A program made the position numbers and the translations under genes. DNA of 64,000 bases, from positions 71,431,836 through 71,495,835 of the forward strand of contig OX419757.1 of the NCBI GenBank assembly GCA_948567375.1, written 5' to 3'. The notes beneath the pieces were generated by a model. It ran no database searches, was not told the origin of the DNA, and saw nothing but the letters and a program-made list of their open reading frames with translations. The DNA comes from Lunularia cruciata. Taxonomy: Eukaryota > Streptophyta > Marchantiopsida > Lunulariales > Lunulariaceae. Below are positions 900 to 50,223 of the stretch, piece after piece (positions within the stretch are counted from its first letter, which is position 1; each line of letters begins with the position of its first letter).

Positions 900-3361
900 T
901 CACTGCGTCGTCTTCTCTTTGTTTCCTTTGGGGCTGCTATATCACGATTTCTTAAGGTCATGGTCACTGGGAGCCAACCTTCATGCATTGCAGTTCAGGC
1001 CTGGGGGTAAGCGGTTAGTGCTGGATACTTGCTACTTCTGGACTATCACTTGAGCCACCTGGTTTGTTGGGGACTCCGAAAACACTACTTAGTTTCTTAG
1101 TAAATTTATACCGCGTAGCACAATCTTCTGGGTGCTTGTATAGTATCTACACTTCTGTGCAAATTGTAAACAGGTGTGAGAATAGCCTCACATCGATGCT
1201 AGTGGCAATTTAAGCTTATACAATTCATCAAATTGGCATAATTCAAACCAGAGGGTCTACTCACTGCTTTGCCAAGTTTTGTAGGTTCTCTGTGAGCTAG
1301 CTTGCTTGTGTGAGAACGCATATGGATTAAATAACGTATCTATTAAATAGTTCTCTAGCACACTACTCGCTGGTCGTATATATATTCGGATTTCCATTGC
1401 TAGATGTTGCGAAAGCGTCAAGTATTAGTATAAAGCATCAAGAAGAATCAAGCGTTGTAACATACTGGTCTAGAAATCGTCACTATACTGACCTCGGTCG
1501 TGTCCCTAATACCGATGATGATTCCTATGCACTGCGTTTACCTCCTGTCAATCAGAAAGTTTCTGACTCACCAAACAGTAATCTTTGCGCTTGTTCACAG
1601 GTTCTGGACTGTTCTTCTTTGTCAATGCTAGCTCGTGTTAGCTGGACTTCACTCCAAATACTGAGCTGATAAAAAGAATGTAGTTGAGGGTGTGATACGT
1701 TCCTCAATACAATCAATCCTGTGGCAAGTGGATGTTGCTTGAATTCTCTAGTGGAGGTAAGGTCTCCAAGACCTCGCGCATCTGTGTCTGTTTTATCTCA
1801 AGCAGCGCTTCAGTCTAACTACCTTTTCAACTACTTCATGTCAGGTTCCTCAAGTTATCGCTTCAGGATTCACGATATCTTACTGCATAAACAGCTCATC
1901 TGCAAATCAGGGTAGTACACTACGAGCGAGAGACTACAAATTTTGTGTATTCGTCCTATCTTTCGAAATACAGATATTTTGGACAGTTCATTTGTAGCCG
2001 TGGTGCACGTTTGCGTCGTGCATGTTCACGGTTGCAGGAAATGTTTGATAATCACTCAGTGCGGACCACATAGTAACATTTTTTTGAACAAAGTACTAGC
2101 TACTTGGTTGTCCTGTTTGTACTAATTTACCTATGTGGGTATTTAAATTTTGCCACGTTCTATTTGATCATGATACATCACATATCAGTTTTGTTGTTGG
2201 ATCAAACTAGTTGGATGTTTGTTTCCGGAGGGTTGGTACTTAGAGGATAATTTGGCCTTGCTGACAGAAGTGTTTAGACCTGGTCAATTGAGGTAGAACC
2301 TCACAATCTGCACAATCTCAAGACTCGCAAATTGCTCATGTACACGTTGCTCTCACAAACTTGATTCAAGGAAACACAGGAGACCTGGGATTGTTGAAAT
2401 CTTGTGAGGTAGAATTCTTATCATCTTAACGCAGTTTAATTCCGATAAAACACGCGGGTTGTGACCTTTCGTCAGGCAGCTAGAAAGCAGTTCGTGGCAT
2501 GAATCCCTCAATGATTGGTGCGAAGAAAGAACTTGCGCCTTCTTCAGCTTTGATTTTCTGAATCCAAAAATCCGTGGGGTTTGCCGAAACAACCAGGCCA
2601 CCGTGATGGGCGACTGGATATTCCTAGCAGTTTCCCAAGTTTTGAAGTGGAATGAATTATTCGCGAAACATATAGGTAAGGTTTCCAGAAACAATTCTAC
2701 CTCCTATTTACCACCTCTTCCAATCACCGAGATTGCGCACAAGACTCTCTCCTTAAAGTTCCGATCGCTGTCATCACACAAGGAAACATTCTCTTTTCAT
2801 GCTTGTTCATAAGAATTGTGGAACTCATCATGGTGCATGCATCATAGCCTGGTACAAAGCAATATGTATACTAGTACTATAAGCTGAATTCTCCAATAGA
2901 AGTTCACTTTGGAAAAGTGTGAATGCCTAAACTCGTTAATATCTGCCCTGGTCTGATACCGCGCGTCACAGGGGTTTACTAGCTAGTGCTCTCTGTTACA
3001 ATCACCAGGGCTCTGCCGTAAGGAAATACGTACTGGTTGAATCTGTTGTAAAGTTTACAGTATTTACAATATACACAATATTCACTTTGGGCCGTGGAGA
3101 ATTCGCATACTAGGATCTGTGAGGCACGAATGCTTATTTTGGGATAACGGTTAATCCGGTATTAATCGCCAGTGACAGAGTTCGGAGGTGAGTAGAAAGT
3201 CTCCTTCAACAGTCATCATGGAAACCAATATTCCCCCACCCAAAATGAATCTGATAATGAGTAGCATGCATCCAACTTTTTTAAACTAGGAGAAGAAATG
3301 AAAGCGAAGATCGCCATACTCGAGTTGTACCCTGACGTCGACATGACCTAGTCTAACGCAC
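900..3361 (+). other. 3' flank of PP2-A10 and spacer, conserved in unit B (and partly C)
   Basis: I see no convincing gene. The stretch 900-1915 aligns by eye with 11330-12420 and, from about 1207, with 38815-39320. Shared landmarks include a block around 1130-1160, one around 1250-1300, and one around 1725-1790. An open frame at 1397-1669 is not kept in the other copies, so it is probably not coding. The 3' UTR of the PP2-A10 gene must lie in the first few hundred bases. Confidence 0.6.
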
Positions 3362-5460
3362 TTGCTAAAGGTCAGTCTGTGGGAGCATCATCCCGCTTTA
3401 GGTCGTAACAATCACGTTTTAGCTATTTCCTCGAGCTCCTCCTGTGTGGTCGCCGAGGATTTCAGTGATGGAAGAAACTGTGAAAGCGTTCAGAATGTTT
3501 CTATTCTGAGTTATGCCGAACTAGTACTCCTTACTGAAAGTGCCGATCAAATGAACCATCTTATTCAAGCACTCACAATTCCTGGCAAATGTTCAGGTTT
3601 GTCATTTCGAGATATTCATACTTGTTGACTATTGAACAGGTACACTGTCTTGTACTTGAATCAGCCTGATTTTATGGTTAGGGGGAAGGCAAGCGAACCA
3701 CTTAGGTTTCATTTTATTTCTGCATATGAATATCGTTTGCTGGATCCAGGAACCTTGAGCAAATTGAGAAAACATGAAGAAGACTAAAGAATCGACCAGG
3801 GTTAGAACGTTCAGTAATACAGCGAGCATCCAGACACATCCAGAAGAACGGGAGGCAACGGGAATGAAATTTGCTGCTGATCGATTGCATCCGGCATCTG
3901 CGTGGAACTCTACAGCGATTGTTCATCCGGACTCAAGACTTGGGACTCCAACCTAACCGGGCTCGCTAGAAGGTGCAAATTGTTGTCAGAACATATAACT
4001 AATATGAATCCATCTATTCTTCATGACATTATGTTACCTGGTTTCCTATTTCATGTTTCGAATTGATCTTGGGTTTACGTTTTGCTTCCGGAGAAACTTA
4101 ATGATAGAGTTTATGTTTTGTACGAGCCCGATAACCAGGCATCACCAGATAGGGAGGTTGTCTTTTTCCATGGGTTAGCTCCGGATCACTACGAGCATCT
4201 GTACAAAGAGACATGGACATCATCAACTGCTCAAGAGTGTTGGCCGACGTTATGGTTTCCCAAAGCATTTCCCAGAGCAAGGATACTGTCAGTCTCATAT
4301 GACTCATGTGTGACCAAGACGGCAATGCAGGGTGTTTTCGATCTACATAATGTCACATAACATCGCCAGAAATCTCATTGAACTTGCCAATATCGCCAGA
4401 ACAATTATCCAGTTCTACTGATTGGTCACATTCTAGGGGGCATCATAATCAAAAGTCTATGCGCTTATGTGGAAGGAGTATTGAGCAGTGGGGTGACTGG
4501 AGTTGCTCCAAGGAATATGCAAAATTCTCAAAGAGCATGGGAGGAGTCTTCTATTTCGGTACTCCTCATCAAGGTCTGGAACTCCTGAGCTTCCGGGCAG
4601 GATCCTGGAAGAACGTAAAGCATGACGGAGAGTGGTACAATATATGGAACCTCTGCAGAAGGACTTGCCAAGAATTAACAATACTTTCCGTAAGCTAAGG
4701 GCAGAGTACGGGTGGAGAGCCTCTGGAGTAGGAACTGCGCACGCAGGTACCCAGAGGTATGTCCTTACTATGATCGCGCTTATCTGCCGCAGAAACAAGA
4801 TACTTGAATATCGGAGGTGTTTATTTCGACTAAAGGAACACTCCCAACCGGAGCGTTTCCTACAGGCTGAGGTTGGTTTGAGAACCTACAGGTTCTCATC
4901 AGAAACATCAATATCTTTTCCAAACATTCTGACATCAAAACTAGTCTCGGATAACTCCAAGATACAACCTGCCTAATATGCTAACCACTCCCACAACTTG
5001 ATCGGTATCCTTGGAACGATCAACAAAGGGATAGAAGAAGAGTGCGCCTTGAGTATCACCATTATTGAGTATCATATCTTGAGTATCACCATTATTGAGC
5101 CACCTGGATTCTCTGCGCTGGAGTGGGTGTGGCTTGATTGTAATCAATGCCAATTGCTGACAGATTATAGAGTGTCAAATCAAGTGTTGATTTGATCGAG
5201 TGTGATTTGAGTTGCACAAGCAAACTTATTATTGTGGCACTTTAGAGTCCATGTATGACTTATGTATGAGTTGTGCTTCTATAGTTTTTGATGTTGATAG
5301 TGATGTATGTTGTATAGCAATATATATACACTCGACAAAGTAGGCTAAACAAGTAACTCAATACAACTCAACACTCAACTTTTAGTACTATGAGAAAAAT
5401 TCTATGGGTATCAAATGACATATGATTCATAAGCTTTACAAGAGATTTTGTAGTAGGTAT
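3362..5460 (+). pseudogene. HNL copy A: alpha/beta-hydrolase NB-ARC receptor, broken and internally deleted
   Basis: This is a degraded copy of the hydrolase-NB-ARC gene at 13.3-17.3 kb. A leader exon (about 3385-3598, donor after ...TTCAG) is followed by a coding exon opening at ATG 3774 with KKTKESTRV, which soon leaves frame. The hydrolase exon is readable at 4087-4360 (LNDRVYVLYEP, VVFFHGLAP, SVSYDSCVTKTA). It then stops and shifts frame repeatedly to about 4770. The nucleophile-elbow position reads GHILGG (Ile codon 4430-4432). Homology to the following intron ends near 4935. The whole NB-ARC region is missing, replaced by about 450 bases, and a short 3' match to the HNL tail resumes near 5388. 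No functional product is expected. Confidence 0.8.
4936..5387 (+). other. Foreign filler replacing the NB-ARC of HNL copy A, with a 22-bp direct repeat
   Basis: This segment has no counterpart in HNL copies B or C. It contains an exact 22-bp direct repeat (5048-5069 and 5078-5099, unit starting CTTGAGTATCACC) separated by 8 bases. The 3' part carries a TATATATA run near 5320. No gene is recognised. It marks the deletion that removed about 2.5 kb of receptor sequence. Confidence 0.55.
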
Positions 5461-6495
5461 TTTCTATGGGTCCTATGAATGAGGTGCTTGATTGTATGGT
5501 GAGTTTTACAAATTGGGTTAGCCCAAAGTTTTCTAGTAAAAAATTAGTTATGTATCTGAGCAGTTTAAAACATCTATTTTCTACATTTATTTATGTTTAT
5601 TTATGGATACATACCTCTTGTGACTACATCATAATTCCAATAACATTACTATAAGATATTTCTTGGAGCTTGTAGGAGTTGATGAAATTCTGTAAATCAA
5701 AACCAAAACCCTATCTTTTTAATTAAGGACTTGGTGACAATGAATTTTTTATTTCTCATCCATTATAATCAATGCATTATAGTGAACTTATTGACCATCA
5801 TTGGTGGGATCGCATGTCACATTTACTGGTAAAGAAGTATTAAATTTCAAAAGCACATTAGTGAGAGTCTACCAAGCAACATTTTATATTTTTATCCTAG
5901 CATATAAATTTGGAAGGATGTAAGATGTGTTTTATTTTCATGTGATGCCCTTGGTAGAAATTTTTCTACCTCCTTAGGATTATAAGTTTGAAATAAAATA
6001 ATTGAGAAGATGTATAACACTTAACTTAGTAAGTACAATTTTGTAACTTTATCTCCACCTTTGACAAACAAATTTCTCTTTCTCTCTTTATGATTTTTAT
6101 ACAAATTCAACTGCAATTTATGATTTTAGCATGACAAGCTATTTTGGCATAGTAGACTTCCTCTTTAATTTGGAAATGGATGAGCTTTGCCTTTTGTGCA
6201 AAATTATAATACAAGCATGTGGAGAGATATTGTTATCAAATCCTTGTAGTTTTTGCTCCATTCAATTCACATGCACTCATAAAATATAGTATGAACACAA
6301 GCCAATCCATGTTTTTGTTAGTGTTAAGTTGCAAAATAATTTAACTAATGAACAATATAATAATCAAAGTTAAGGAAAATCTTTTTATTTGCTATTTCTT
6401 GATAACATCTCACACAGACAACTCATAGAAGAGGAGTATCTCATTACTATCTCTCAACAACCATACGCATTTGAGCTCTTGACCTGCTCTAGATA
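5460..6495 (+). repeat. Downstream flank of HNL unit, duplicated at 49.53-50.65 kb
   Basis: It aligns collinearly with 49530-50645. Matching landmarks are the stretch around 5600 (TTTATGGATACATACCTCTT), the one around 5945-5975, and the one around 6385-6480. The two copies differ by many substitutions, and this copy is more AT-rich. On the minus strand the 49.5-50.4 kb copy gives several short coding-like stretches, but none in this copy is long. This pairing shows copies A and C of the HNL share the same original downstream neighbour. Confidence 0.7.
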
Positions 6496-11125: not shown

Positions 11126-11330
11126 GTATTAGATGTTGTTGGTACTCATCAAGCAATTAGCTCTGAAGTTATCAGAAAAAACACTTGAATTTATCCTAAA
11201 AAACTTGCCGTTTTTATTTCAAAGGAAAAGGAAAAAGTTCAAAGAGAAGAGGTGTCAACTTCAACAATTGTGACAATTGCTACCAAGACCTACGAGTTGG
11301 CCAATCTTTGTGGTAAGGCTTCTTCTTCTC
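11126..11330 (+). pseudogene. PP2-A10 3'-end fragment (copy B)
   Basis: The sequence matches 623-920 of the PP2-A10 gene: the stretch coding for ALVLDVAGT, the basic FRSKKKEVQKEE region, and the VTKTGDLA region. It then jumps across an 88-bp deletion (equivalent to 801-888 of the gene) straight to AATCTTTGTG. Frameshifts and stops abound and no 5' part is present, so it is non-functional. The same deletion is present at 30.3 kb. Confidence 0.75.
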
Positions 11331-12889
11331 TTTGCTTCCATTGCACTTCAGGCTTAGGGGTGAGCGTTTAGTGCTGGAATACTCGGTCATTTACTTCTGG
11401 ACTATCAATTGAGCCACCTGATCTAAAAATACTTCAGAGTTTCTTAGTAAATGTTTACCGCATAGCACAATCTTCTGGGTGCTTGTATAGTATCTGCACT
11501 TAAGTGGAAATTGTAAACAGGCGTGAGAATTTGCGCCACATCGATGCTAGTGACAGTGTAAACGTATACAATCAAATTGGTGTAATCCAAACCAGAGGGT
11601 CTACCAACAGCTTTGCCAAGTTTTGTAGATTGTCTCTATGAGCTAGCTTCCTTATGTGAGAAAGCATCATGGAATATCTAGAAGGTATCTATCAAATAAG
11701 TTCTCTAGCACCATACTCTCTGGTCGTATCTATATTCGAAATTCCATTGCTGCATGTTGTGAAAGCATCAAGGATTGGTATAAAGCATCAATAAGAATCA
11801 AGTATTGTAACACATTAATAAGAATCAGTATTGAACACATTGGTCAAGAAACTATCACTATACTGACTTCTGTTCCGTCTATAATACCGATGTTGACGCC
11901 TATGCTCTGCGTTTACCTCCTGTCAATCAGAACGTTTCTTACTCACCAGAAAGTTATCTTCTCAATTGTCCAGAGAAATATAGCTAACAGGCGCAATAAT
12001 ATACCCAAAGAAAAAGGAGAAAAGGCACACCAAAAAGTGCAAATAAAAGGAAGAATCCAAAAACTCAATAAAAATGATCCGAACAGTCTATAACCTGTCA
12101 CAGGTTCTAGACCGTTCTTCTTTGTCAATGCTCACTCGTCTTTAGCTTGAGTTCACTCCACCTACCGAGGTGAGTAAAAGTAGTTGAGGATGGGATACGT
12201 TTGCCATACAACCAATCCTGTGGCAAGTAGGTGGTGCGTGAATTCTCTAGTGGAGGTACGGTCTACAAAACCTCGGGCATCTGTGTCTGTTTTGTCTGAA
12301 GCAGCGATTCACTCTAACTACCCTATCAACTACTTCCATATCAGATTTCTCAAGTTATCGCATCACGATTCACGATATCTTACTGCATAAACAGCCCATC
12401 TGTAAATCAGGGCATACACTACGCGCAAGTGACTACAAGTTTTGTGTATGACTTCCATCCTTCGAGATACAGATATTTTGAACACTCCATTTGTAGCCCT
12501 GGTGGACGTTCGCGGCTTGCATGTTCACTGTTCCAGGAATTGTGTTTAATAATCAATCAGTGCGGACCACACAGTCACATTTCTTTGTAAAACGTACAAG
12601 GAACTTGTTTGTCCTGTTTGTACTAACTTACATACGTGAATATGTAAACTTTGACGCGTTTTACTTCACCATGGTACATCTCATTTCGGTTTTGTTATTG
12701 GATCAAAGTTCTTAGACGTTTGCTTCCCGTAGATTTGATGTTTAGAGGATAATTTGGCCTTACGGGAACCCCCCAGAAGTGCTTAGACCTGGTCAATGGA
12801 GGTAGAATCTCACAATCTGCATGGTTTCGAACCTTACAAATTGGTCATGGACACGTTGCCTTGATGGTTCATAGCCGTGGCTGTGAACC
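11331..12889 (+). other. Spacer of unit B, homologous to 920-1920 and 38.8-39.3 kb
   Basis: It is collinear with the PP2-A10 3' flank of unit A. It differs by an A/G-rich insertion of about 130 bases at about 11960-12095, belonging to the dispersed A/G motif also seen near 6.5 kb. Open frames at 11656-12093 and 12184-12390 do not agree in frame with the other copies, so I do not call them genes. Confidence 0.55.
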
Positions 12890-13095
12890 ATCTTTCCTCT
12901 TTAGTTCGTAGCAATTACGTTTAGCTATCCTCCTCGAGCTCCCCCTCTGTTGTCGCAGAGGATCTCAGTGATCGAAGAAACTGTGATAGCGTTTAGAATG
13001 TCGCTATTCTGAGTTCTGCGGAACTAATAATTACTGAAGTGCCGATCAAATGAACCATCTTATTCAAGCACTCACAATTCCTGACAAATGTCCAG
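12890..13095 (+). other. Probable leader exon of HNL copy B
   Basis: This stretch is conserved in all three units (about 3395-3598, 12890-13095 and 39335-39515) and ends in each copy at the same consensus donor, TCCAG or TTCAG followed by GTTTGTCATTT. The next acceptor candidate is ...GACTCAG at 13241-13247, 24 bases before the coding ATG. In-frame stops occur here, so it would be untranslated sequence. Conservation across decayed copies reflects common descent and does not prove function. Confidence 0.45.
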
Positions 13096-13271
13096 GTTTG
13101 TCATTTGAGATTTTGATACTTGTTGACTGTTGAATATGTAAACTCTCCTGTACTTGAATCAGCCTGAGTTTATGACTAGCGGTAAGGCATGCGGACCGCG
13201 TGGATTCTATCTTGTTTCCTCATATGAATATCGTTTGCTGGACTCAGAAACCTTGAGCCAATCGGAAAAAC

Positions 13272-16200
13272 ATGACGAGGACTAAAGAATCGACCAGGGT
13301 TGAACATCCAGTCATACAGCGAGTATCAAGACACATCCAGAAGAACAGGACGCATCGGGTGTGGAACTTGGGGCTAATCGATTACATCCGGAATCTGTTT
13401 GGAACTCCACAGCGATTGTTCATCCCGACTGAGGACTTGGGACCCCAACCTAACGGGGCTCGAGAGAAGGTGCAAATTGTGATCAGAACATAGAACTGAT
13501 ATAGATCCATCTATTCTTCCACATATTCTATTACTTTGGTTTTCTATCTCATGTTTCGAATTGATCTTGGGTTGATGTTTTACTTTCGCAGAAACTTAAT
13601 GACGGAGTTTATGTTTTGTACGAGCCCGACAACCGAGCATCCCCAGATATGGAAGTTGTTTTTTTTCATGGGTTAGCTCTTCATCACTACGAGCATCTGT
13701 ACAAAGAGGCATGGACATCGTCAAGTACTCAAGAGTGTTGGCCATCAGTATGGTTGCCCAAATTATTTCCTGGAGCAAGGATACTGTCAGTCTCGTATGA
13801 CTCGTGTGTGACCAAGACCGCAGTGCAGGGGGTTTTTGATCTACACAACGTCACAGAGAACATCACCACAAATCTCATTCAACTAGCCAATGTGGGCCAG
13901 AAGAATTGTCCAGTTGTACTGATTGGTCATAATCTAGGGGGCATCATAATCAAAAGTCTATGCGTTTATGTGGAAGGAGTATTGCGCAGTGCGGGTGACA
14001 GGGGTTACTCCGAGGAATATGCAAACTTTTCAAAGAGCATGGGAGGAGTCTTCTATTTCGCTACTCCTCATCAAGGTCTGGAACTCCGAAGCTCCCGGGC
14101 AGGATCCTGGAAGAAGGTAAAGCATGACGGAGAGCTGGTACAATATTTGGAGCCTTTGCAGAAAGACTTGTCAAGGATTAACGATACTTTCCGTCAGCTA
14201 AGACTACAGCACGGATGGAGAGCCTTTGGAGTAGGACCTGCACACAAGAATACAGAGGTATGTCCTTACGCTGATGGCGTTTATCTCCCGCGGAAACAAG
14301 ATATCGGAGGTGTTTATTTAGACTACTTAAACCCCTAACCTCCGCTTTTCCTACAAGCTGAGGGTAGTTTGAGAACCATAAAATTAGAGGAATTGGACCT
14401 GTGAAATAACCATCTCTTTTCCAAACATTCGGGTTCTTTCTAGTAGGTGATTTTGTATTCCAAAATTCTTCAAGCACGTCTCCCAGAATTCTTATTTCTT
14501 CATAGTTAGGATTCACGCCTGCGGCACTTGTACCAACGAAGTTTTCATGTGTCGCAGGGACTTCATGATTTGGAAGAAGCGTCATGCAGATATGATACGG
14601 ACAGTTTTTTTATGGCTGAAGAGGATTCGGAGAGCATTTGCAAGCTACAATCTGAATCATCATCGACATTTCAATTTCTTGTTCGTTTCATAGAATCCAG
14701 CCGCCATGGCTCTACTGTTACAACTTTAAGTCTTCCCTTCAAGCAGGATTCTCGGTATGTGCCGTTAAGCGGAACTTTGCAAAACCTTCGTTCCGCCCTC
14801 CAGCGTGACTCGCAAGTCGTGCTGCTCTATGGACCGCCTGGTTCTGGCAAAACATGCTGCCTGCAGTATCTCGCACTACAGTACCAACAAGAGCTGAGAG
14901 ATTCCAAATCACATGTAGACGAATGTTCTTGTTTCTTGCCCAGGGGTGGAATTTTCTACGTTGTATGTGGACCGGAAACATCTGCCGAAGTAGTGAAGGA
15001 TGACATCCTCAAACAAATAGGGAGAAATGCGCAACGTGGATTTTGTCAGCTCGGGAAAGGATTTCAAACAGGTGATGATCAGGATGACTGGAACCAGAAT
15101 AACGGTTCAAGACTGAGTGTGCGACACAATCTGCTTCGGGACCGGTATCATCTGTTCTGCATGAAAAAGGCACTGATTATACTGGATGGAGAACCAAATG
15201 TTGGTCTTCTGCAAGAAATGGTGCAATGTTCTGAGGGAGTGAAGTTCCTTGTCGCTTCGGAAAGTTCAAATGGTTTTGGGGATTGCGTCTGTGTAAAACT
15301 GGATCAATTGAAGGAGGCTGAAGCCGAGCTAGTGCTGGTCAAACATGCGAGTTTTGAAGGTGAAGTGATACCGGACCAGTTAAAGGTATGGTCAATTACC
15401 TTCGAAGTTCAGATTTTTTTTCCTTTACGGTATGCTGTTTGATGCGTTCTGTGTGGTGTTTCCTTTGACTCTTTCATGGTAGACTTGGTGGTTGAAGCAC
15501 CCCCAGTACGGAACGAAAGGAGGACAATGTTGGAAGCTCTTAATTTTTGTGAGCCTCGTGACTCGTGAATGCCTCTGTGCAGGATGTTACTCATAACATT
15601 CTCGTACTTACTGATCGGAACCCTTTGGCCATATCCACGTTGGCTGCGGCAATACATCCTGATCGGAGAACTTCAGTCGCGGAGTGGAAGGACATCGAAA
15701 GGACTTATTACAAGCTTTTGCAAGCCGACTTTTTCCGAGCTGAAATGTTTGGGACAAGATACCGAAGACGAGTCGACGAAGCGATGACGGTTGCTGTAGA
15801 CCGATTAAGACAGCAGTCCGCCATGGCGGAGAAGCTGTTATATCTAATCTCAGCATGCGGTCGAAGAGTCGACACTTACGGGCTGTACCTGCTTGCTAAA
15901 TTCACATTACCGGCTACATACGAGTGGGAGACGGTTTCTTCATGCATCCGCCTCCTAGAGAGTAAATTACTTATATCACGTGAAGACTACAACAAATATC
16001 CACTCTTCTTCAAGGGTGCGAAACAACAGTATCTCGAATCTCCTGGCGGTGTGCGCACAAAATTTATTCTTGACAGGGGGCGAAACTTCCTTACGGAGAT
16101 TGTGAAGAAAGGAGATATCAAGTCAAGAGGCGGCTCGGCAGATGAGAATGATGACGCAATATTTTCGACATGTCTGCTGGCAGTTTTCGGGGAAAAGCAA

Positions 16201-16644
16201 ATCGCGGAAACCGCTCTAAGAGCCTTAGGGAGCGCCTTCGAGTTTAACCCTTTGCTTGGATTTGGGGGCTGGTTGAGACCCTTGTTCCAATGGATGTACA
16301 AGTACCTTGCAGAAGAACCATACAAAGAGCAACCTTGGTTTTCATTGGTGAGGAAGGTAAGATTCAGGTACCGAAACTATGAATCAAATGACAGCCCTGG
16401 GAAAGGAGTTGTCCAGGAGAGAAATATATAACTTTTGTCATTCCCGAAGTTTTCTAGACAGATATTCTGAAGTTTGCATAGCAATAGGATAGACTTTGCA
16501 TAAAGACAGACGTTAAGAAGGTGTGAAGGTCCCTGCCACTGTTGAATCTCGTCATGTCTGAATTTACAGGTAGCCGTTTGTTATGCGACCCAGAATGTAG
16601 TGGATATCGATTCCATTAAGCAGTTGATAACCATCTATTCATAA
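13272..16644 (+). CDS. HNL copy B: alpha/beta-hydrolase-like + NB-ARC immune receptor, ended by an in-frame stop
   Basis: Five exons join in phase 0 with GT-AG introns: 13272-13469, 13592-14257, 14558-15385, 15583-16356, 16570-16644 (846 residues). Residues 67-288 form a SERAC1/lipase-like alpha/beta-hydrolase fold (VVFFHGL, YDSC, then GHNLGG at 178-183 where GHSLGG is expected, then ATPHQG). The nucleophile is Asn180, so catalysis is unlikely. The NB-ARC has Walker A GPPGSGKT (380-387), Walker B ALIILDG (Asp498), an RNBS-B-like KFLVASES (517-524) and a GLPLA-like NPLAIS (577-582), followed by a winged-helix-like segment (LAEKLLYLISACG). No canonical MHD motif is seen; FILDRGR may sit in its place. 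By family knowledge this is a cytoplasmic NLR-type switch. I see no LRRs. Exon 5 meets TAA at 16642-16644, where copy C reads TCA; the frame stays open for 204 more codons. It is either a recent pseudogene or a truncated receptor. Confidence 0.8.
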
Positions 16645-17256
16645 AATTTTCCTTCCGACGATTGGCGCGGAATTCCAGCCGCAGAGTCTTCCATTGTTCA
16701 GTACATCAAGGACGTTTGTGGCATCGATCTACAGTATCCGCAGCGCAACCCAATGGTGCGTTTGTACGAGTGTTTTGTACGCGGCCAAGGCAAACAATTG
16801 ATTGAGGCTATTTCCGCTACCGTGAAGATGATATTGCGCCGAGGAGATAGATCAATTGTTCTGAAGGTGGATCCCGGTGATGAGGGTATTCGGATCAAGA
16901 GGGCTAAGGGAGATCTGGATGATTACGGAGGCCCGGAGAAACTGATATATGAAGATTTGGATGATCATAGTTTTGACCCTGATTTCGAGTTCAGGTGGAC
17001 GGATTGGAGCGATGAAAAGTTTCCAGACCGACTTCCCGCTGCATGCGCAGTGGTCGTGGAAAGGTCACTAGAAACTTCTAGTACTAAGAGAAATTTTCAT
17101 TTCCAAATCTTTGATGGGCAGTACCTTGGGATAGAAGAGATCGAGAACCGTTTGATGCACGTTCTTAGAGTCCGATGTTTAGGTGTTAAATATTTTTATC
17201 TTCCAAAATCCATTTTAGGTGTTCAATATTTTAATCTTCCAAAATCCATTCGTTGA
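16645..17256 (+). pseudogene. HNL copy B C-terminal domain, downstream of the in-frame stop
   Basis: The frame of exon 5 continues without another stop to TGA at 17254-17256 (an internal Met codon lies at 16753). The sequence includes LYECFVRGQGKQLIEAISAT and AACAVVVERSLETSSTKRN. The same segment is present in copy C (48545-49500), so it belonged to the ancestral receptor. I recognise no named domain; it is not LRR-like. From about 17098 onward copy B departs from copy C, and the last 25 codons are built from an imperfect duplicated stretch (about 17185-17212 and 17219-17248), so the original C-terminus was probably replaced here. Confidence 0.6.
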
Positions 17257-17687
17257 AACGAATATTGTACCCGGGAACTCAAATGCACAATATTACTCCT
17301 CAATATTCAGTATTTTGGAATTGAATGTTACACTTCCAAGATAACTATCTTTCTATCAAATATCCAAATTCATCAACCCAAACATCTGAATTTGTGAACG
17401 TGGATACCCAACAGCGTAGAGTACGTCCATTTTTGCTGATCAGAAAGATATTTAGCTCAGAACCTTATAAGGACACCGGAGTCATCAACTTTCTTTCTTG
17501 TTCTTGGTGGAATTAAACGTAACAAAATTTGAACAACACTAAATCCATATTGAGTGCATCAAATTGGGAGAAAATAACATATAGTACCAATTAACCTACT
17601 TGAATGCACAATAACCGATTATTGTCAACCTAAACCTGTAAAAACCTGTGTATGGCCACAGCATCTATACAATCACAGACACGAAGT
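17257..17687. other. Convergent spacer between HNL copy B and P450
   Basis: This is an AT-rich stretch with no gene recognised. It must hold the 3' UTR of the minus-strand P450. It is absent from units A and C, so the P450 locus is either the original neighbour of copy B or part of a later rearrangement. Confidence 0.4.
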
Positions 17688-19927
17688 TTAGAAACTGATT
17701 CCTGAATCCTCGTAAACTGACTTTTCTTCGCGTGGGGTGATAATAACCTCAAAGTCATTTAGCATCCCTATGGTTGCCCCAGTAGGAGCCTCGTCTAATT
17801 TGATATCCTCGGGTTTCATTCCTTCTGGAAGGGAGAAATTGCACGTTTGGAGAAGCTGCGCCACGCTGAACTCAAGGAAGAGCCTCCCCATATTCATGCC
17901 CGGACACACTCTTCGACCTGAACCGAACGGTAGAAACTCAAAACTGGATCCCCGAAAATCAATGGAGCTCTTTAAGAACCTGCTCGGATTGAATTCTAAA
18001 GGATTCGGCCATGATTTTGGATCCCTCATAATTGCGTATATATTCACGAGCACTCTAGTTTTGTTGGGTATGTCGTAACCATCTATTTTGGTCGCCTCGA
18101 TATTCTCATGAGGTGGTAGAATTCCTAAAGGAGGATGGAGTCTAAAGCTTTCGTTTAGAACTGCACGAAGATAAGGCAGATTCTCGAGATCTGATTCGTC
18201 TACGAGTCTATCCTTCCCTACGACGAGATCAAGTTCGTCTTTGAGCCTCGCCATGACATCAGGATGCCGCATCAGCTCAGCCATCGTCCAGAGAGATGAA
18301 TTTGATGAGGTCTCAGTACTTCCTGTAATCATATCCTGCGACATTCCGTTGACAGGATTTTAGTGACAGAAACATAAATTACGTTGTAGAGTACATAGAA
18401 TTTGGTTCAAATTTGTGCACTGAAATCCTTCTTCGTAAAGTGCCAAGCAGCTTAAGTTGACGAAAATCTAAATGAATTGCCTGACTTCCAAACCTTGGTA
18501 CTGTCAAACAAACGAGTAGCAGAGGTAAAGAGCCGGCAGTTCTCTTCGTCGAATCAATAATCGCCCCAAACAGAAATTGTCAAAATTTAGTCACCAGCGG
18601 GCAGTCTTCTTGCAGTTCGTAATTTATATTGGAGTGTAATCTGATTACTTGAGATAATTACCAGAGCGGTGATTCAAATTTAGGAATACTTACGAATAGA
18701 AGTCCTTTGATCATGTCGTCAGAGAGGCAAGGTGTTTCACCAGTAATACTTCTGTCCCGTTGAAGTTGAAGTAGCACATTAGCAAAATCCATCTGTTCGT
18801 CCTCTCGGACGGTTCCCGACGAATATCTTTGACGATACTCTTGAAGCATATTCTCAAAAAACCTATCAATGTTGAAAGCTGCCCTCCGGAGTTTTCCCTC
18901 AAAGCCATCTAAATCGAGTCTGCGGAGCCAATGTAGAAATTCTGCAATTCCATAGAAGCCGATGGTGATGAGCTCTGCTATAACCACGGGGAAGGGAACC
19001 ATCTCACTCGTTTCTTCTTTCTGCAACAACTTTCGTTCGTACAATTTTCTGCTGAACATCAGTCGGGTTATGTTGTTGAATGAAATTGCTGCTAATTTGT
19101 GCCTCAAATTGACCGCTTTGCCGTCATGGCCCTCTCTCAGTAAATCCTCCACACCAATGTTTACTTCGTTCCTCCTAACTTCCTGCCCACAGTTACCAGC
19201 GCAAGTGTAATGCCATGCACTTGTGATCGAGTACTTAGTCTTTCAACACAATCGGCAGACATTTACCGATTCGGATGACTTCAATGTACCAAAATGGAAG
19301 TTGGATGTATCCAGAGTCCAAGTGAAACGGCAGATTCCTATCCTACCGCTTCTTATTCTCTGGTCCATCATTGCTACTATATTCGCATGAAAAGACATCA
19401 CTGGAGGGGGCATTTAGTTCCCATGAATTATGAAAGTGAGAATATGTTAATACCTTGAATTGCTGTACCCGTTTCGGACTGAGGAGCTCCGTAGCGGAGA
19501 TTTTCCGGAGCATGCGGAAGCGATCACCCAAGGGTGAGAATAGCAGGTCCTGAGAACCATAATGCATGACATCTCCGTATAGAGTTTTTGGACGAGAGGC
19601 GAAGATATGGTCCTGGGTCTTGAGAACTTCTTTCGCCATTTCTGAAGAGGAAACGACGACCATTCCAACTGAACCCAACCTGAAATCCATGAGTGGTCCA
19701 TATTTTTCAGCGAGTTTCTGAAACATCTGATGGGGTGGTACTTTGTTGTCGAGGAGGAGAAGGTGCCCAATAACTGGCCATCCTGGAGGACCTGGAGGCA
19801 GTCGAGGTCTGTTTCGGTAGTTTCTGTAGAAAACCAGAAACACCAGAGCAACAGCAGCGGCAGTTAGAAATGCAGCGTAGTTTCCCACTACCCCGTCAAT
19901 CCATAACTTTGACGGTGCTTCTGTCAT
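17688..19927 (-). CDS. Cytochrome P450 (CYP71-clan-like, A-type), intact three-exon gene
   Basis: Exons 19454-19927, 18694-19182 and 17688-18335 (minus strand) join in phase 0 with GT-AG introns to give 536 residues. An upstream in-frame ATG at 19969 would add 14 residues. I prefer 19927 because MTEAPSKLW leads directly into the membrane anchor (about 19-36). The proline hinge PPGPPGWPVIG is at 44-54, the I-helix TGSTET at 325-330, ExxR as ESFR at 383-386, the PERF-equivalent PSRF at 438-441, and the haem loop FGSGRRVCPG at 458-467 with Cys465. All signature residues are present, so the enzyme should be a working ER-anchored monooxygenase. The substrate cannot be told from sequence. The I-helix has Ser-Thr-Glu where Thr/Asp-Thr is more usual. 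It lies convergent to HNL copy B and has no duplicate in the window. Confidence 0.92.
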
Positions 19928-20400
19928 CCTTCTGCCTGTACTCAAGGCCCAGGATGTTGATTTGTACACACTCGAAGGTTAGTTTCCAATGTTTGTATCC
20001 TCTTCGATTTTGAAACGTTAACTTCACCTCTTGCTGTAGTAGGGTTAAATATCCTTCTGTGCAATGCCAGGACTTGCAGAGAGATAAACTCGAATAAACA
20101 ATGGATGCGAGATACATATTCGAAGCTCAAGAAAAGTGGTAGTTCAACTATTCAATGGCTTCGAATCTCTTTACAGATATCAGCTGTTGCACACTAGGCA
20201 CTTTTACACGTTTCCTAGATGGGGAGATCTACTACTCAATACACTCATTGGAACTAAAGCAGCAGAAACGATTATGCTCGAAATCCACTTTCCCGGCATG
20301 ATGTACTGGTTTTGCAACAAAGGAACTCACTTTACCTGCATGCATACAGATATCTTAGTTTAATGTCATTCCCAATCAACATTGGTCATTTATGTCATAT
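19928..20400 (-). promoter_or_regulatory. Upstream region of the P450 gene
   Basis: It lies immediately 5' of the P450 start. No clear TATA box or operator-like element could be picked out by eye. GC content drops sharply above 20.35 kb, which suggests the gene's upstream region ends there. Confidence 0.3.
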
Positions 20401-30200: not shown

Positions 30201-30340
30201 TCACTCTTCTTCTACAAATGGATGTTAATGGTTAAATCCAAAATTTGTTCATAAATAAATGCAAGAAGGATAATAAGATACATGTGCTCCATCACCTACT
30301 CCATGAACTTAGGGCAAAAATGAACTTTAGATGATAATCT
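27250..30340 (+). repeat. Segmental duplication, copy C (partner at 8183-11125)
   Basis: It is collinear with unit B in the same orientation. It carries one clear insertion relative to B, the 125-bp element at 28378-28502. No coding function is recognised. It runs directly into the second PP2-A10 fragment, exactly as in unit B. Confidence 0.75.
28378..28502 (+). mobile_element. 125-bp SINE-sized dispersed element with 12-bp target duplication
   Basis: The element is flanked by identical CAAATGCACAAT copies (28366-28377 and 28503-28514). Unit B has a single CACATGCACAAT at the matching place (about 9331-9342), a natural empty site. The body contains GGCGACCGCG, GAAGGATGGGAAGACC and a self-complementary GGGGCTAAACCCC. 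Related copies lie at 37684-37806 (minus), 48850-49050, 50775-50860 and 51045-51130. The size and the 12-bp duplication suit a retroposed SINE-like element. I see no clear pol III A/B boxes, so the class is open. Confidence 0.65.
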
Positions 30341-38804: not shown

Positions 38805-39334
38805 CTTTGTGTATGGCAATGAAAGCTTATACAATTGATCAAATTGGCATAACCCAAACCTGAGGGTCTACCCACTGCTTTACCAAGTCTTGTAGGTTGT
38901 CGTCGTGCGCTAGCTTGCTTGTGTGAGAAAGCATCATAGATTATTCGTAACGTATGCATCAAATAGTTGTCTTGCAGCATACTCTGGTCGGACATTGCAT
39001 AAGTATCAAGGAGAATCAAGCATTGCAACATACTGCTTTCGAAATCTATCGTTGTACTGACCTCTGTCTTGTCTAGAATACCGATGTTGATTCCTATGCA
39101 TTGCGTTTACCTCCTGTCAATCGGAAAGTTTCTCACTCACCAGATAGTTATCTTCGCACCTGTCCACAGGTTATAGACTGTTCTTCGTTGTCAATGCTAG
39201 TTCATCTTAGCTTGAGTTCACTCCACATACTAAGCTGATATAAACGAGTTGAGGATGTAACACGTTATCCATACAAGTAATCCTGAGGCAAGTGGATGTT
39301 GCTTGAATTCTCTAGTGGAGCATCTTCCCTCTTA
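38805..39334 (+). other. Spacer of unit C resuming after the composite insertion
   Basis: It aligns with 1207-1760 and with the matching part of unit B (about 11560-12260); landmarks are AGCTTATACAATTGATC, GGGTCTACCCACTGC and TTGCTTGAATTCTCTAGTGGA. It is slightly shortened against the other copies. It runs into the HNL leader exon homology at about 39335. Confidence 0.6.
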
Positions 39335-39696
39335 GATCGTAGCAATCACATTTGAGCTATTCTCCTCGAGCTCCTCCTTTATGATTTCAGTTATCGAAGA
39401 AACTGGGATAGCGTTCAGAATGTCCCTATTCTGAGCTCTGCGGAAAGAGCACTCCTTACTGAAAGTGCTCGAAATGGACCATCTTATTCAAACACTCACA
39501 ACTCCTGGTAAATGTTCAGGTTTGCCATTTTGAGTTTTTGATACTGTTGACTTTTGAACATGTATTCTGTCCTGTACTTGAATCAGCCTGATTTTTATGG
39601 TCAGAGGGAAAGCATGCGAACCGCGTAGGTTTTATCTTATTTCCTCATATGAATTTCGTTTGCTGGATGCAGAAACCTTGACCAAATCGCGGAAAC

Positions 39697-42600
39697 ATGA
39701 AGAAGGCTAAAGAATCGGACAGGGTTGAACATTCAGTCATACACCGAGTATCTAGACGCATCCAGAAGAACGGGACGCAACGGGTGTGGAATTTGGGGCT
39801 AATCGATGGCATTCGGTATCGGCTTGAAACTCCACAGCGATTGTTCATCCTGACTGAAGACTTGGGACTCCAACCTAACAGAGCTCTAGAGAAGGTGCAA
39901 ATTGTTGCCAGAACATACAACTAATATAAATCCATCTATTCTTCATGACATTATATTACCTTGGTTTTCTATCTCATGTTTCGAATTTGCCAGTGGTTTA
40001 CGTTTTACTTTCACAGAAACTTAATGATGCAGTTTATGTTTTGTACGAGCCCGATAACCAAGCGTCACCAGATATGGAGGTTTTTTTTTTCCATGGGTTA
40101 GCTCCTGATCACTACGAGCATCTGTACAAAGAGGCATGGACATCGTCAAGTACTCAAGAGTGTCAGCCGTCGTTATGGTTGCCCAAATCATTTCCTAGAG
40201 CCAGGATACTCTCAGTCTCGTATGACTCATGTGTGACAAAGACCGCAGTGCAGGGTTGTTTTGATCTTCACAATGTCACAGAGAACATCGCCACAAATCT
40301 CATTGAACTTGCCAATGTGGGCCAGAACAATTGTCGAGTTGTACTGATTGGGTACAATCTAGGGGGGGCATCATAATCAAATGTCTATGTGTTTATGTGG
40401 AAGGAGTATTGAGCAGTGGGTGTGACAAGAGTTGCCGCGAGAAATATGCAAAATTCTCCAAGAGCATGGGAGGAGTCTTCATTTCGCTACTCCTCATCAA
40501 GGTCTGGAACTCTGGAGCTCCTGGGCAGGTTCTTGGAAGAACGTAAAGCATGACGGAGAGCTGGTACGATATTTGAAGCCTTTGCAGAAGGACTTATCAA
40601 GAATTAACGATACTTCCCGTAAGCTTATGGTACGGCACGGGTGGAGAGCCTCTGGAGTAGGACCTGCACACAGGAACCCAGAGGTATGTTCTTACTCTTA
40701 TCGCGCTTATTTGCCGCAGAAGAAAGATACTTGAATATCGGAGGTGTTTATTTCGACTAATTAAACACCCCCAACCTCACCCTTTCCTGCAGGCTGAGGC
40801 TGCTTTGAGAACCATAAAATTAGAGGATTTGGACCTGTAAACCATCGATCTCCTTGCCAAACATTTGGGTTTCTTCTAGTAGGTGATTTTGCCTGCTGAA
40901 AACCATCAAGCACGTCTCCTAGGATTCTTATTTCTTCACAGTCGTGATTCTTGCCTGTGGTACTTGTACCAACGAACTTCATGTGTCGCAGGGACTTCGT
41001 GATTTGCAAGAAGAGTCATGCAGATATGACACGGACAACTTTTATATGGCTGGAGCAGATTCGGAGAGCATTTGCAAGCTACAATCTGAATCGTCATCCA
41101 CATTTCAGTTTCTTGTTCGTTTCATAGAATCGATCCGTCATGGTTCTACTGTCACAACTTTAAGTCTTCCCTTCAAGCAGGATTCGCGGTATGTGCCGTT
41201 AAGCAGAACTTTGCAAAACCTTCGTTCCGCCCTCCAGAGAGGCTCGCAAGTCGTGCTGCTCTATGGACAGCTTGGTTCTGGCAAAACGTGCTGGTTGGAG
41301 TATCTCTCACTCCAGTATCAACATGAGTTGCGAGATCCGAAATCACATGGAGACGAGTGTTCACTTCGCCTACAGGTGGAATTTTCTGTTGTGTGTGGAC
41401 CTGCAACATCTGCCAACCACGTCCAGGATAACATCCTCAAATAAATAGGGAGAAATGCCCAACGTGGAGTATGCCAGCTCTTAAAAGGATTTCAAACAGG
41501 TGATGATCAGGAAGACTGGAACCAGAATAACGATTCAAGACCAAGTGTGCACCACAGTCTGGTACGGGACCAGTATCATCTGTTCAGCATGAAAAAGGCA
41601 CTGATCCTACTGGATGGAGAACCAAAGGTTGGGTCTTCTGGAAGAAATGGTGCAACGTTTTGACGGAGTGCAGTTCCTAGTCGCTTCGGAGAGTTCAAAT
41701 AGTTTTGGGAATTGCGTCTGTGTAAAAATGGATGGACTGAAGGAGCGTGAAGCCGAGTTAGTTCTGGTCAAACATGCGGATTTGAAGGTGAAGTGATACC
41801 GGGCCAGCTAAAGGTATGGTCAATTACCCTCGAAGATCAGATTCTTTTCTTTTCTTTTCGGTATGCCGTTTGATGTGTTCTGTGTGGTGTTTCCTTTCAC
41901 TCGTTCAAGGTAGACTTGGTGCTTGAAGCACCCACCCGTCGGTACAAAATGAAAGAAGGACAATCTTCGGAGCTCTCAATTTTGATCAAAATCGCGAATG
42001 CCTGTGTGCAGGGAGTTACTTATAACATTCTCAGGCTTACGGATGGGAACCCTTTAGCTATATCGACGTTGGTTGCGGCAATAAATCCTGATCGGAGAAC
42101 TTCAGTCGCTGAGTGGAAGGACATCGAAGAGACTTACTACGTGCTTTTGAAAGCCGACTATTTCCGAGCTGGAATGTATGGAACACCATATCCAAGAGGA
42201 GTCGGCGAAGCGGTGACTGTTGCTGTATACCGATTAAGAGAGAAGTCCACCTTGGCAGAGAAGCTGTTATATCTAATCTCAGCTTGCGGTCGGTAAGTCG
42301 AAATGTACACGGTGTACCTGCTTGCTAAATTCACCTTACAGACTAGCTACGGAATGCAGATGTTTTCTCTTTGCATCCGTCTCCTAGAGAGTAAATCACT
42401 TTTATCACGTACACAGAGCAAATATCGATCTCGTTGTTTAAAGACGACTGTGAAATTCCAATACCTCGTACGTCCTGGCGGAGTGCGCAGAAGATTTATT
42501 CTTGACAGGCGTCGAAACTTCTTTCCGGAGACTGTGAACAAAGGAGAAATCAAGTCAAGAGGCGGCTTGGCAGACGAGAATGGTGACTCAATTTTTTCAA

Positions 42601-42732
42601 CATGCCTGCTGGCAGTGTTCGCGGAAAAGCGGAAACCGCTCTAAGAGCCTTAGGGAACGCCTTGGAGATTGAGTGGTCTTGTTTTCAGATTTGGGGGTTG
42701 GTTGGCACCCTTGTTTGAATTGATGTACAAGT
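39697..42732 (+). pseudogene. HNL copy C, 5' and central part
   Basis: Exon equivalents are 39697-39894 (clean, 66 codons), 40017-40683, 40992-41813 and 42012 onward, matching copy B. The hydrolase exon carries GYNLGG at the nucleophile elbow (Asn codon 40356-40358), then a two-base G-run expansion near 40366-40372 and a one-base loss near 40480. The NB-ARC exon has Walker A as GQLGSGKT but a premature TAA near 41441-41443 (CAA in copy B) and further shifts. The segment after DGNPLAIS is readable to about 42296, then broken. At 42732 the copy is split by a copia element, resuming at 48253. It is a non-functional allele-like relic with the same exon plan as B. Confidence 0.8.
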
Positions 42733-42786
42733 TGTTATGTTTGGATTGCTATAAGTGACTTGCCTTGTTTGAATTGATGTACAAGT

Positions 42787-48252: not shown

Positions 48253-49529
48253 GCCTTGACAAAGAACCAAAAAAAGAACAGGTGAGGTAGGTGAGATTCT
48301 GGTACTGAAATCATCAATCGATTGACAACCTCTGGGAGAGGAGTTGTCGAGGAAAGATATATATAACTTTTGTCCTTCCCGAAGTTCGCTAGAGGAATAT
48401 CCTGAAGTTTGCATTGCAATAGGATAGAGTTTGCAGAAAGACAGACGTTTAGAAGGTGTGAAGGTCCCTGCCACTGTTGAATCTAGTCATGTTTGAGTTT
48501 TATAGGTAGCGGTTAGTTATGCGACCCAAAATGTAGTGGATATCGATTTCATGAAGCGGTTGATAACCTTCACTTCCTCAAATTTGCCGTACGACGATCG
48601 GCTCGGAATTCCAGCGACAGAGTCTTCCATTGTTCAGAACCTTTTGCAGGTTTATTACAATCGTCTAGACGACAGCCCAATGAAGCGTTTGTACGAGAGT
48701 TTCGTACGCGGCCGAGGCAAGCAATTGCTTAGGCTTATTTCTGCTACCGTGAAGATGATATTCTGACGGGGAGATAGATCAATTGTTCTGAAAGCGCATC
48801 CCGGTGATGAGGGTATCGCGATCAAGAGGGCTAAGGGCGATCCAAATCTATAAACAAAGAAGGCAACCGCGTAGGAAAATGAAGGATGGGAAGACCCCAT
48901 CAAGCCTTACAAAGGAGAGACAAAAAAAGGTAACATGAGGCTAAACTCCAATAGAGTCTAGATGAGAAATCTGTCTTACCTTACAAAGGAGAGACAAAAA
49001 AGTAACATGGGCTAAACTCCAATAGAGTCTAGATGAGAAATCTGTCTTATCGTACCTAATATATCTAAGCTATGCAAGTTTTGTATTATCTACATAGAAC
49101 CCGAGTATCAAATAAATATCATCTAATGTGATTATTTTCCTATGGATTACACTCGCCATTGTCTCTTATATAACTATGGACACATATTATCTAAAATATA
49201 TTATAAAACAATGAATGAAAATGGTACCTTCTTAGGGCAAAGAGGTCTAGATGATTACGGAGGCATGGAGAAGCTGATTTTATGAAGATTTGAATGATCA
49301 TAGTTTTGACCCTGCTTTCGAGTCTGAGGTGGCGGATGGGAACGATGAAATTAGATTTAACGCCGACTGGGAAGCAGTTGCAAGAACCCCACGGCAAGGA
49401 ATTCTAAGACCAGAAGAGTATCCAGACCCAATTACCGCTGCATGCGCAGTGGTCGTTGAAAGGTCCCTAGAAACTTCTAGTACTAAACGAAATTTTCTGT
49501 GGGCAGCTAGTGAAGTACAACTTGTATGA
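48253..49529 (+). pseudogene. HNL copy C, 3' part resuming after the copia element
   Basis: After the copia right end, homology to the HNL copy B exon 4/intron 4 region resumes. An acceptor (TTTATAG) precedes the exon 5 equivalent at 48506, which reads through SSNLPYDDRLGIP, where copy B has its stop, and on to LYESFVRGRGKQLL before meeting a TGA at 48764-48766 (CGC in copy B). An insertion of about 380 bases lies at 48845-49225. The tail then reads AACAVVVERSLETSSTKRN and ends at 49529. Copies B and C thus carry different stops and are intact at each other's stop. Confidence 0.75.
48845..49225 (+). mobile_element. Insertion with two tandem partial copies of the 125-bp dispersed element
   Basis: It is inserted in the HNL C tail between sequences that are adjacent in copy B (after GGGCTAAGGG, near 16912). 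It contains GCAACCGCGTAGG and GAAGGATGGGAAGACC, then a repeated block (TTACAAAGGAGAGACAAAAAA near 48908 and 48978), then about 170 AT-rich bases. An AGGGC(A/T)AAG(A/G)G-like sequence on both sides may be a diverged target duplication. Confidence 0.55.

Positions 49530-50163: not shown

Positions 50164-50223
<60 letters not shown>

What the first reader, a model, noticed from the sequence alone, without database searches (positions are those of the whole stretch)
13272..17256. Hydrolase-NB-ARC receptor family whose hydrolase has lost its nucleophile serine
Seen: the nucleophile elbow reads GHNLGG in copy B (Asn, codon 13931-13933), GYNLGG in copy C (40356-40358) and GHILGG in copy A (4430-4432), while the surrounding fold (VVFFHGL, ATPHQG) and the NB-ARC motifs are kept. 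Known: active lipase/SERAC1-type hydrolases have GHSxGG there. Inference: the serine was lost before the local duplications, so this branch of HNLs carries a pseudo-hydrolase, perhaps a binding or decoy-like sensor domain instead of an enzyme.
Basis: partly seen in the sequence, partly recalled or inferred. Interest (0 to 1): 0.8.

Follow-up and report, generated by a model that had tools for sequence, protein, structure and literature searches.

The report
Plant immune receptor with dead hydrolase
A plant immune-receptor-like gene, probably from a bryophyte, carries an enzyme domain that has lost all three residues it would need to work, yet selection appears to have kept that domain after the loss, which suggests it became a binding part rather than an enzyme, although this gene copy now also carries a premature stop.

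Summary
In detail: the nucleophile codon is AAT (Asn) in copies B and C and ATT (Ile) in copy A, at the stated positions. The hydrolase domain continues into exon 3. Against 83 prokaryotic and viral-contig relatives (nucleophile Ser in 83 of 83, acid Glu in 79 of 80, His in 79 of 80), copy B has Asn, Pro and Ser. Copy C has the same three codons, so the active site was lost before those copies split. Copies A and C are broken pseudogenes. Copy B kept 822 codons open (8.1 stops expected if neutral) and shows purifying selection on the hydrolase exon after the loss (19 replacement, 19 silent changes; P 0.0009). But copy B has an in-frame TAA in exon 5 where C reads TCA, so it may be a truncated or dying allele. 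Architecture and phase-0 introns partly fit the hydrolase-NBS class of bryophytes. No plant collection could be searched, so whether other plant members keep the triad is untested. A binding, scaffold or decoy function is inference.

The parts
13272..13469 (+). Copy B exon 1 (66 codons, phase 0); no constraint seen (8 replacement, 2 silent changes on the B branch)
13592..14257 (+). [quoted passage not shown]
13931..13933 (+). Nucleophile position, codon AAT (Asn); Ser in 83 of 83 relatives
14237..14239 (+). Catalytic acid position, codon CCT (Pro); Glu in 79 of 80 relatives; alignment here less certain than at the other two sites
14558..15385 (+). Copy B exon 3: last ~47 residues of the hydrolase domain, then P-loop (GPPGSGKT) and first part of the NB-ARC-like domain
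14627..14629 (+). Catalytic histidine position, codon TCG (Ser, EDSESICK); His in 79 of 80 relatives
15583..16356 (+). Copy B exon 4: rest of the NB-ARC match (to residue 605) and the region after it; no significant constraint between B and C
16570..17256 (+). Copy B exon 5 reading frame; no Pfam match in the part after the stop
16642..16644 (+). In-frame TAA (codon 847) in copy B; copy C reads TCA at the aligned place
986..4929 (+). Copy A: duplicated segment with exons 1-2 only, frameshifted; elbow ATT at 4430-4432, acid site ACT at 4734-4736
38814..42786 (+). Copy C, 5' part: hydrolase, NB and following exons with frameshifts and stops; elbow AAT 40356-40358, acid site CCT 40663-40665, His site TCG 41061-41063
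48281..49497 (+). Copy C, 3' part, separated from the 5' part by a Copia-type element

Best explanation
This is a local cluster of three copies of a hydrolase-NB-ARC-like receptor gene whose N-terminal alpha/beta-hydrolase became a pseudo-enzyme in their common ancestor. Nucleophile Ser became Asn, the acid Glu became Pro, and the His became Ser, while the fold and its HG, elbow-glycine and TPH landmarks stayed. After the copies split, selection still kept copy B's hydrolase exon, so the domain had a job that needs no hydrolysis by this triad. I think the likeliest job is non-catalytic: the hydrolase fold as a binding or contact surface (ligand, effector or partner) in front of the NB switch, as in other plant hydrolase-fold proteins. 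Copies A and C later decayed, and copy B now carries a premature stop in exon 5. Shown: the residue states, their sharing between copies, the selection signal, the predicted fold of exon 2. Inferred: absence of activity, the binding role, the immune role.
For: Ser 83/83, Glu 79/80, His 79/80 in relatives against Asn, Pro, Ser in B. A profile of 51 relatives scores the spliced B domain 100 bits and places B's Asn and Ser on the catalytic Ser and His columns with high confidence. In a bacterial relative's model (pLDDT 87.7) the invariant S114, E206 and H237 sit at the elbow, at the end of a late strand and after the last strand. B's exon 2 model (pLDDT 79.8, pTM 0.80) keeps that topology as far as exon 2 goes, and Foldseek's 50 listed matches are mostly serine hydrolases, esterases and thioesterases. 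B and C share AAT, CCT and TCG. B branch, exon 2: 19 replacement, 19 silent, P 0.0009; B-C pair, exon 2 P 0.0011, exon 3 P 0.0007. 0 stops in 822 codons against 8.1 expected.
Against: An in-frame TAA truncates copy B. Exon 1 shows no constraint and exon 4 none that is significant (P 0.78 and 0.41; dN/dS 0.85 to 1.27 and 0.78). Comparators are prokaryotic or viral contigs at about 19-34% identity; no plant relative was available. The acid alignment is only moderately certain, and acid and His were not anchored on a solved structure: the printed PDB alignments cover the nucleophile half only. Copy B was picked as the most open copy, which inflates the stop and indel statistics. Six to eight other conserved columns outside the search pattern have changed too at the 0.9-0.98 thresholds counting the three catalytic ones, so targeting of the active site is only weakly supported (P 0.03 to 0.07). 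No expression, activity or ligand data.
Confidence: 0.6

Rival explanations
1. Ordinary decay: all three copies are pseudogenes in a transposon-rich region, and the lost catalytic residues are part of that decay.
For: Copies A and C carry frameshifts and stops; copy B has a nonsense codon in exon 5; exons 1 and 4 look nearly neutral; exon divergence is not far from intron divergence.
Against: Two of the three changes need three substitutions each and are identical in B and C. Copy B's exon 2 is constrained on its own branch (P 0.0009) and exons 2 and 3 are constrained between B and C. No stop in 822 codons with 8.1 expected. None of five B-specific indels in the shared region lies in a coding exon (P 0.017).
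Confidence: 0.27
2. The active site was lost class-wide: many or all plant hydrolase-NBS receptors of this lineage lack the triad, so nothing special happened in this branch.
For: At least seven substitutions separate B's three codons from an active triad, so the loss is old (codons; genetic code). Cell death by two Marchantia hydrolase domains was reported without a hydrolase active-site mutant in the section that I read (PMC11218826 section 8), so the literature seen here does not show that catalysis matters.
Against: From recall, not from a call: plant members often read GHSFGG or similar. Not testable here.
Confidence: 0.3
3. The domain is still an enzyme with a displaced or different set of catalytic residues.
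For: The fold and several pocket landmarks are kept: the HG motif, elbow glycines and TPH.
Against: Nucleophile, acid and general base positions are all changed. The one His near the exon 3 start (LHDLEE) is Arg in copy C (DNA). A Gly after the HG motif, 82 of 82 in relatives, is Leu in B and Pro in A and C.
Confidence: 0.06

Closest known systems
Hydrolase-NBS-LRR (HNL / Hyd-NLR) class of bryophytes (PMC3352924; PMC11218826)
   Same: N-terminal alpha/beta-hydrolase followed by an NB domain; two phase-0 introns before the P-loop
   Different: Triad residues lost; no LRR found in exon 4 or in exon 5 after the stop; NB-ARC score just below Pfam's cut-off; one further intron falls inside the NB-ARC match, a place not named in the class description that I read
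Bacterial hydrolase-headed conflict proteins (PADLOC DUF626_VIII; PD-Lambda-4, PDC-M54A; ABC-three component proteins)
   Same: Exon 2 matches the same hydrolase profile (E 4.8e-8) as five of five bacterial relatives scanned. In 3 of 8 relatives scanned with Pfam an AAA or STAND-type NTPase match follows the hydrolase, one of them above its cut-off
   Different: The bacterial relatives keep Ser, Glu and His; the plant gene has introns
EDS1/PAD4/SAG101 lipase-like family
   Same: Plant immunity proteins with an alpha/beta-hydrolase fold used for contacts (PMC9528080, passages)
   Different: Not NLRs; EDS1 and PAD4 keep the SDH triad according to that passage; no sequence relation tested
GID1 gibberellin receptor
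   Same: A hydrolase-fold plant receptor without enzyme activity, attributed to loss of its active-site His (PMC3531792, passages)
   Different: Keeps Ser and Asp, which contact the hormone, according to those passages; that it is free-standing without an NB domain is recalled; no sequence relation tested

Membership tests
Hydrolase-NBS-LRR (HNL) class | N-terminal alpha/beta-hydrolase domain | tested here: met
   Profile of 51 relatives 100 bits, AF2 model of exon 2, Foldseek matches to hydrolases; Pfam hydrolase families alone stay below their cut-offs
Hydrolase-NBS-LRR (HNL) class | NB-ARC domain | tested here: inconclusive
   Pfam NB-ARC 22.2 bits over residues 368-605 against cut-off 23.5; AAA_22 above its cut-off
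Hydrolase-NBS-LRR (HNL) class | Two phase-0 introns before the NB domain (number and phase) | tested here: met
   Introns after residues 66 and 288, both phase 0, precede the P-loop; class rule from PMC3352924 section 8
Hydrolase-NBS-LRR (HNL) class | Intron places: one inside the hydrolase, one between hydrolase and NB domain, one behind the NB domain | tested here: inconclusive
   Here the intron after residue 66 lies ahead of the part aligned to relatives, the one after 288 lies inside the hydrolase by the bacterial alignment, the one after 564 lies inside the NB-ARC match (368-605) and the one after 822 behind it. Marchantia positions were not available for comparison
Hydrolase-NBS-LRR (HNL) class | C-terminal LRR | tested here: not met
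   No Pfam match at E up to 10 in exon 4 or in exon 5 after the stop; the class paper allows truncated members
Hydrolase-NBS-LRR (HNL) class | Groups with bryophyte HNLs in a tree | not testable with these tools
   No plant collection; no genome held for the window
Active serine hydrolase of the SERAC1/DUF676 type | Nucleophile Ser in the elbow | tested here: not met
   Asn in B and C, Ile in A; Ser in 83 of 83 relatives
Active serine hydrolase of the SERAC1/DUF676 type | Catalytic acid after a late strand | tested here: not met
   Pro in B and C, Thr in A; Glu in 79 of 80; alignment moderately certain
Active serine hydrolase of the SERAC1/DUF676 type | Catalytic His after the last strand | tested here: not met
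   Ser in B and C, site absent in A; His in 79 of 80
EDS1 family / GID1 family | Sequence membership | not tested
   Used only as functional parallels

The most novel reading that the evidence does not exclude
A lineage of plant NLR-type receptors turned its N-terminal effector enzyme into a catalytically dead, selectively maintained sensing or decoy domain, the hydrolase counterpart of a pseudokinase or of GID1, in a receptor whose hydrolase has bacterial relatives with an intact triad at the head of anti-phage-type NTPase proteins.
Probability: 0.4. Interest if true: 0.7.

Novelty: new variant of a known kind. Interest (0 to 1): 0.52.

Why it matters
What the hydrolase of bryophyte hydrolase-NLRs does is an open question: a review says little is known of its precise biochemical function (PMC10952240, passages). 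The Plant Cell study that showed cell death by two Marchantia hydrolase domains reports no hydrolase active-site mutant in the section I read (PMC11218826 section 8). A natural receptor copy that lost all three triad residues, yet seems to have stayed under selection, is a ready test of whether catalysis or mere folding is needed.

Tried and rejected
No whole genome is held for the window, so paralogues elsewhere in the genome could not be collected. A viral-contig scan with exon 2 alone found no relative; with the alignment it gave three. No phage record matched at E up to 1. Comparison with PDB sequences gave for exon 2 four weak hits, the best a fumarate hydratase (E 0.00055) that I take for a local chance match around GHNLGG, and for exon 3 mostly AAA+ P-loop matches, E 0.0057 at best. 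A profile of 51 relatives matched 12 PDB sequences at E up to 0.1, esterases and lipases by name, and the three printed alignments cover the nucleophile half only. The protein queries were in the wrong frame and were not used; its DNA map was.

Literature: searches (open-licence PMC full text only). One search listed no paper; one search listed one on another hydrolase family. I read passages or single sections of PMC11218826, PMC3352924, PMC10952240, PMC7145615, PMC9528080 and PMC3531792, none as a whole. 'Serine' does not occur in the main text of PMC11218826 or PMC3352924, so neither treats the nucleophile by that word. I make no wider claim of absence.

Considered and rejected: that the Asn is a one-step fresh mutation (possible for that codon alone, not for the acid and His codons); that copies A and C are independent functional genes (both are broken).

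Limits of the statistics: the chance that all three catalytic columns fall among B's changed columns is 0.02 to 0.03 with every conserved column, but 0.03 to 0.07 after leaving out the nine columns at and around the elbow that the search pattern fixed, so targeting of the active site is not proven. The stop-codon simulation starts from copy B itself and takes the B-branch rate from 652 non-coding sites. Branch changes are assigned by majority among three copies without an outgroup. Pooled exons 1 and 2 give P 0.0055, exon 2 alone 0.0009, exon 1 alone 0.78.

Rows left out: 8 of 12 plasmid hits were fetched; the other four were of the same genus or species as fetched ones. One of the eight, L003, ends before the His site. 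80 of 126 genome-contig relatives were returned by the tool. In one search, 3 of 83 had gaps at the acid and His sites (L053, L071, L086), and the one exception at both sites, L034, looks like a frame break. One search kept 58 of 83; alignments A2 and A3 hold 53 and 51 of those. Padloc was run on 5 and Pfam on 8 bacterial relatives.
Full report
What was checked. This model is mine, from splice-like sites and open frames. The fifth exon carries an in-frame TAA at 16642-16644, where the aligned codon of copy C is TCA. The predicted product is therefore 846 residues. The frame stays open for another 203 codons after the stop.

The three copies. A self-comparison shows one segment present three times: about 986-4929 (A), 11339-17500 (B), and 38814-42786 continued at 48281-49497 (C). 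C is split by a Copia-type element (integrase and related Pfam matches at 44776-46182) with a 265-base direct repeat at both ends, 89% identical. A has lost exons 3-5. A and C are broken by indels and stops. In C a two-base insertion lies one codon after the elbow codon. Only copy B is open through the whole hydrolase domain.

The exon 2 reading frame matches Pfam only weakly (Abhydrolase_6 19.1 bits, DUF676 15.8 bits, both below the cut-offs), but tblastn against plasmids found relatives in 12 records at E up to 1. Eight were fetched. Their alignment with B shows that the hydrolase domain ends about 47 residues into exon 3, where bacterial motifs of the type DHxxICKP (7 of 8; L003 ends earlier) match B's DSESICKL.

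All three catalytic positions are changed. A pattern scan that allowed Ser or Asn at the nucleophile returned 80 loci of prokaryotic genomes (of 126 found) and three viral contigs. Nucleophile Ser is found in 83 of 83, the acid Glu in 79 of 80 and the His in 79 of 80; three loci have gaps at the last two sites, and the single exception, L034, looks like a frame break. In B these positions read Asn, Pro and Ser. A separate profile alignment puts B's Asn and Ser on the catalytic Ser and His columns with high posterior confidence and the Pro on the Glu column with moderate confidence. In 51 relatives S114, E206 and H237 are invariant, and in the model of one of them (mean pLDDT 87.7) they lie at the nucleophile elbow between strand and helix, at the end of strand 200-206, and after strand 231-233. 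[quoted passage not shown] no coordinates were available to measure distances, and the printed PDB sequence alignments reach only the nucleophile half.

The fold is kept. With 53 relatives as alignment, exon 2 of copy B gives a model with mean pLDDT 79.8 and pTM 0.80, with the elbow between strand 108-113 and helix 116-133 and the acid position just after strand 210-214. The 50 Foldseek matches listed are mostly serine hydrolases, esterases and thioesterases, with query TM-scores of only 0.32 to 0.55. Of 29 columns at least 95% conserved in relatives, B keeps 20; all three catalytic columns are among the nine it changes. The chance of that is 0.02 to 0.03 over all conserved columns, and 0.03 to 0.07 once the columns that the search pattern fixed are left out, so targeting of the active site is suggested, not proven. 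A Gly near the HG motif, 82 of 82 in relatives, is also changed: Leu in B, Pro in A and C.

The loss predates the copies. B and C share AAT, CCT and TCG at the three sites; A has ATT and ACT at the two it retains. CCT and TCG are three substitutions away from every Glu or His codon, so they cannot be fresh decay in B and C separately. Asn alone would be one step from Ser (AGT).

The domain was still selected after the loss. On the B branch exon 2 shows 19 replacement and 19 silent changes (25% silent expected if neutral, P 0.0009), against 28:12 on the A branch and 20:12 plus one stop on the C branch, neither different from neutral (P 0.30 and 0.11). Between B and C exon 2 (P 0.0011) and exon 3 (P 0.0007) are constrained; exon 4 is not (P 0.41), nor is exon 1 on the B branch (P 0.78). 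Pairwise dN/dS for exon 2 is 0.37 to 0.52. A neutral simulation expects 8.1 stops in the 822 codons of exons 1-4 of B, and none is there (P 0.0002). These figures are softened by the choice of the most open copy and by assigning changes by majority among three sequences without an outgroup. Still, constraint on a lineage that already lacked the nucleophile is what separates a pseudo-enzyme from simple decay.

What it is. Hydrolase before NB domain, and two phase-0 introns before the P-loop, fit the hydrolase-NBS-LRR class described from Marchantia (PMC3352924, section 8 read). The fit is not complete: one more intron falls inside the NB-ARC match and one behind it, the NB region scores 22.2 bits for Pfam NB-ARC, just under the cut-off of 23.5, while AAA_22 passes, and no LRR was found. 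The class is said to be abundant in liverworts, Sphagnum and Ceratodon (PMC10952240, passages read). The organism of the window was not identified by any search, and 'bryophyte' rests on the gene class. Exon 2 also matches a PADLOC hydrolase profile (DUF626_VIII, E 4.8e-8) that all five bacterial relatives scanned match too; one of these five is otherwise PD-Lambda-4-like and one PDC-M54A-like. In 3 of 8 relatives scanned with Pfam an AAA or STAND-type NTPase match follows the hydrolase (one above its cut-off), one carries an ABC-three component C-terminal domain, and five carry TPR repeats. So the pairing of this hydrolase with an NTPase occurs on both sides, and these bacterial partners keep the triad.

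How it most likely works. I favour a non-catalytic role: the fold as a binding or contact module in front of the NB switch. Precedents are GID1, a hydrolase-fold receptor without activity, attributed to loss of its His (PMC3531792, passages), and the lipase-like domains of EDS1 and its partners, which serve for contacts (PMC9528080, passages). Shown here: residue states, sharing, constraint, predicted fold. Inferred: lack of activity, binding role, immune function. Against it stands the premature stop in exon 5 of copy B, which may mark a recent null allele, a truncated but working form, or a sequencing error.

Verdict. It is a new variant of a known receptor class rather than a new kind of system.

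Noticed in passing
window 43766-47796: Copia-type retrotransposon coding region inside copy C, flanked by 265-base direct repeats (42786-43047 and 47825-48082, 89% identical)
   Followed up: partly
window 8183-11342 and 27247-30553: A second repeat pair of about 3 kb, 84-87% identical, of unknown nature
   Followed up: no
window 5474-6494 and 49525-50642: Downstream flanks of copies A and C match at 67%, which suggests that A lost exons 3-5 by deletion between retained flanks
   Followed up: partly
window 17688-19978, minus strand: Cytochrome P450 reading frames directly downstream of copy B (Pfam p450 in two reading frames)
   Followed up: partly
window 55838-61848: Reading frames resembling plant lysine-ketoglutarate reductase/saccharopine dehydrogenase (AlaDh_PNT_N match in the first; the enzyme name is recalled)
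   Followed up: partly
window 15167-15265 and 16060-16090: Copy B's NB region lacks some textbook NLR letters (LDGEP at kinase 2, VASESS at RNBS-B, ILD where MHD is expected); motifs recalled, not tested
   Followed up: no
L001, L010, L026, L029, L036, L043, L048, L059: Bacterial relatives of the hydrolase head quite different proteins: PD-Lambda-4-like, PDC-M54A-like, ABC-three component and TPR proteins, so the domain looks like a mobile module of bacterial conflict systems
   Followed up: partly
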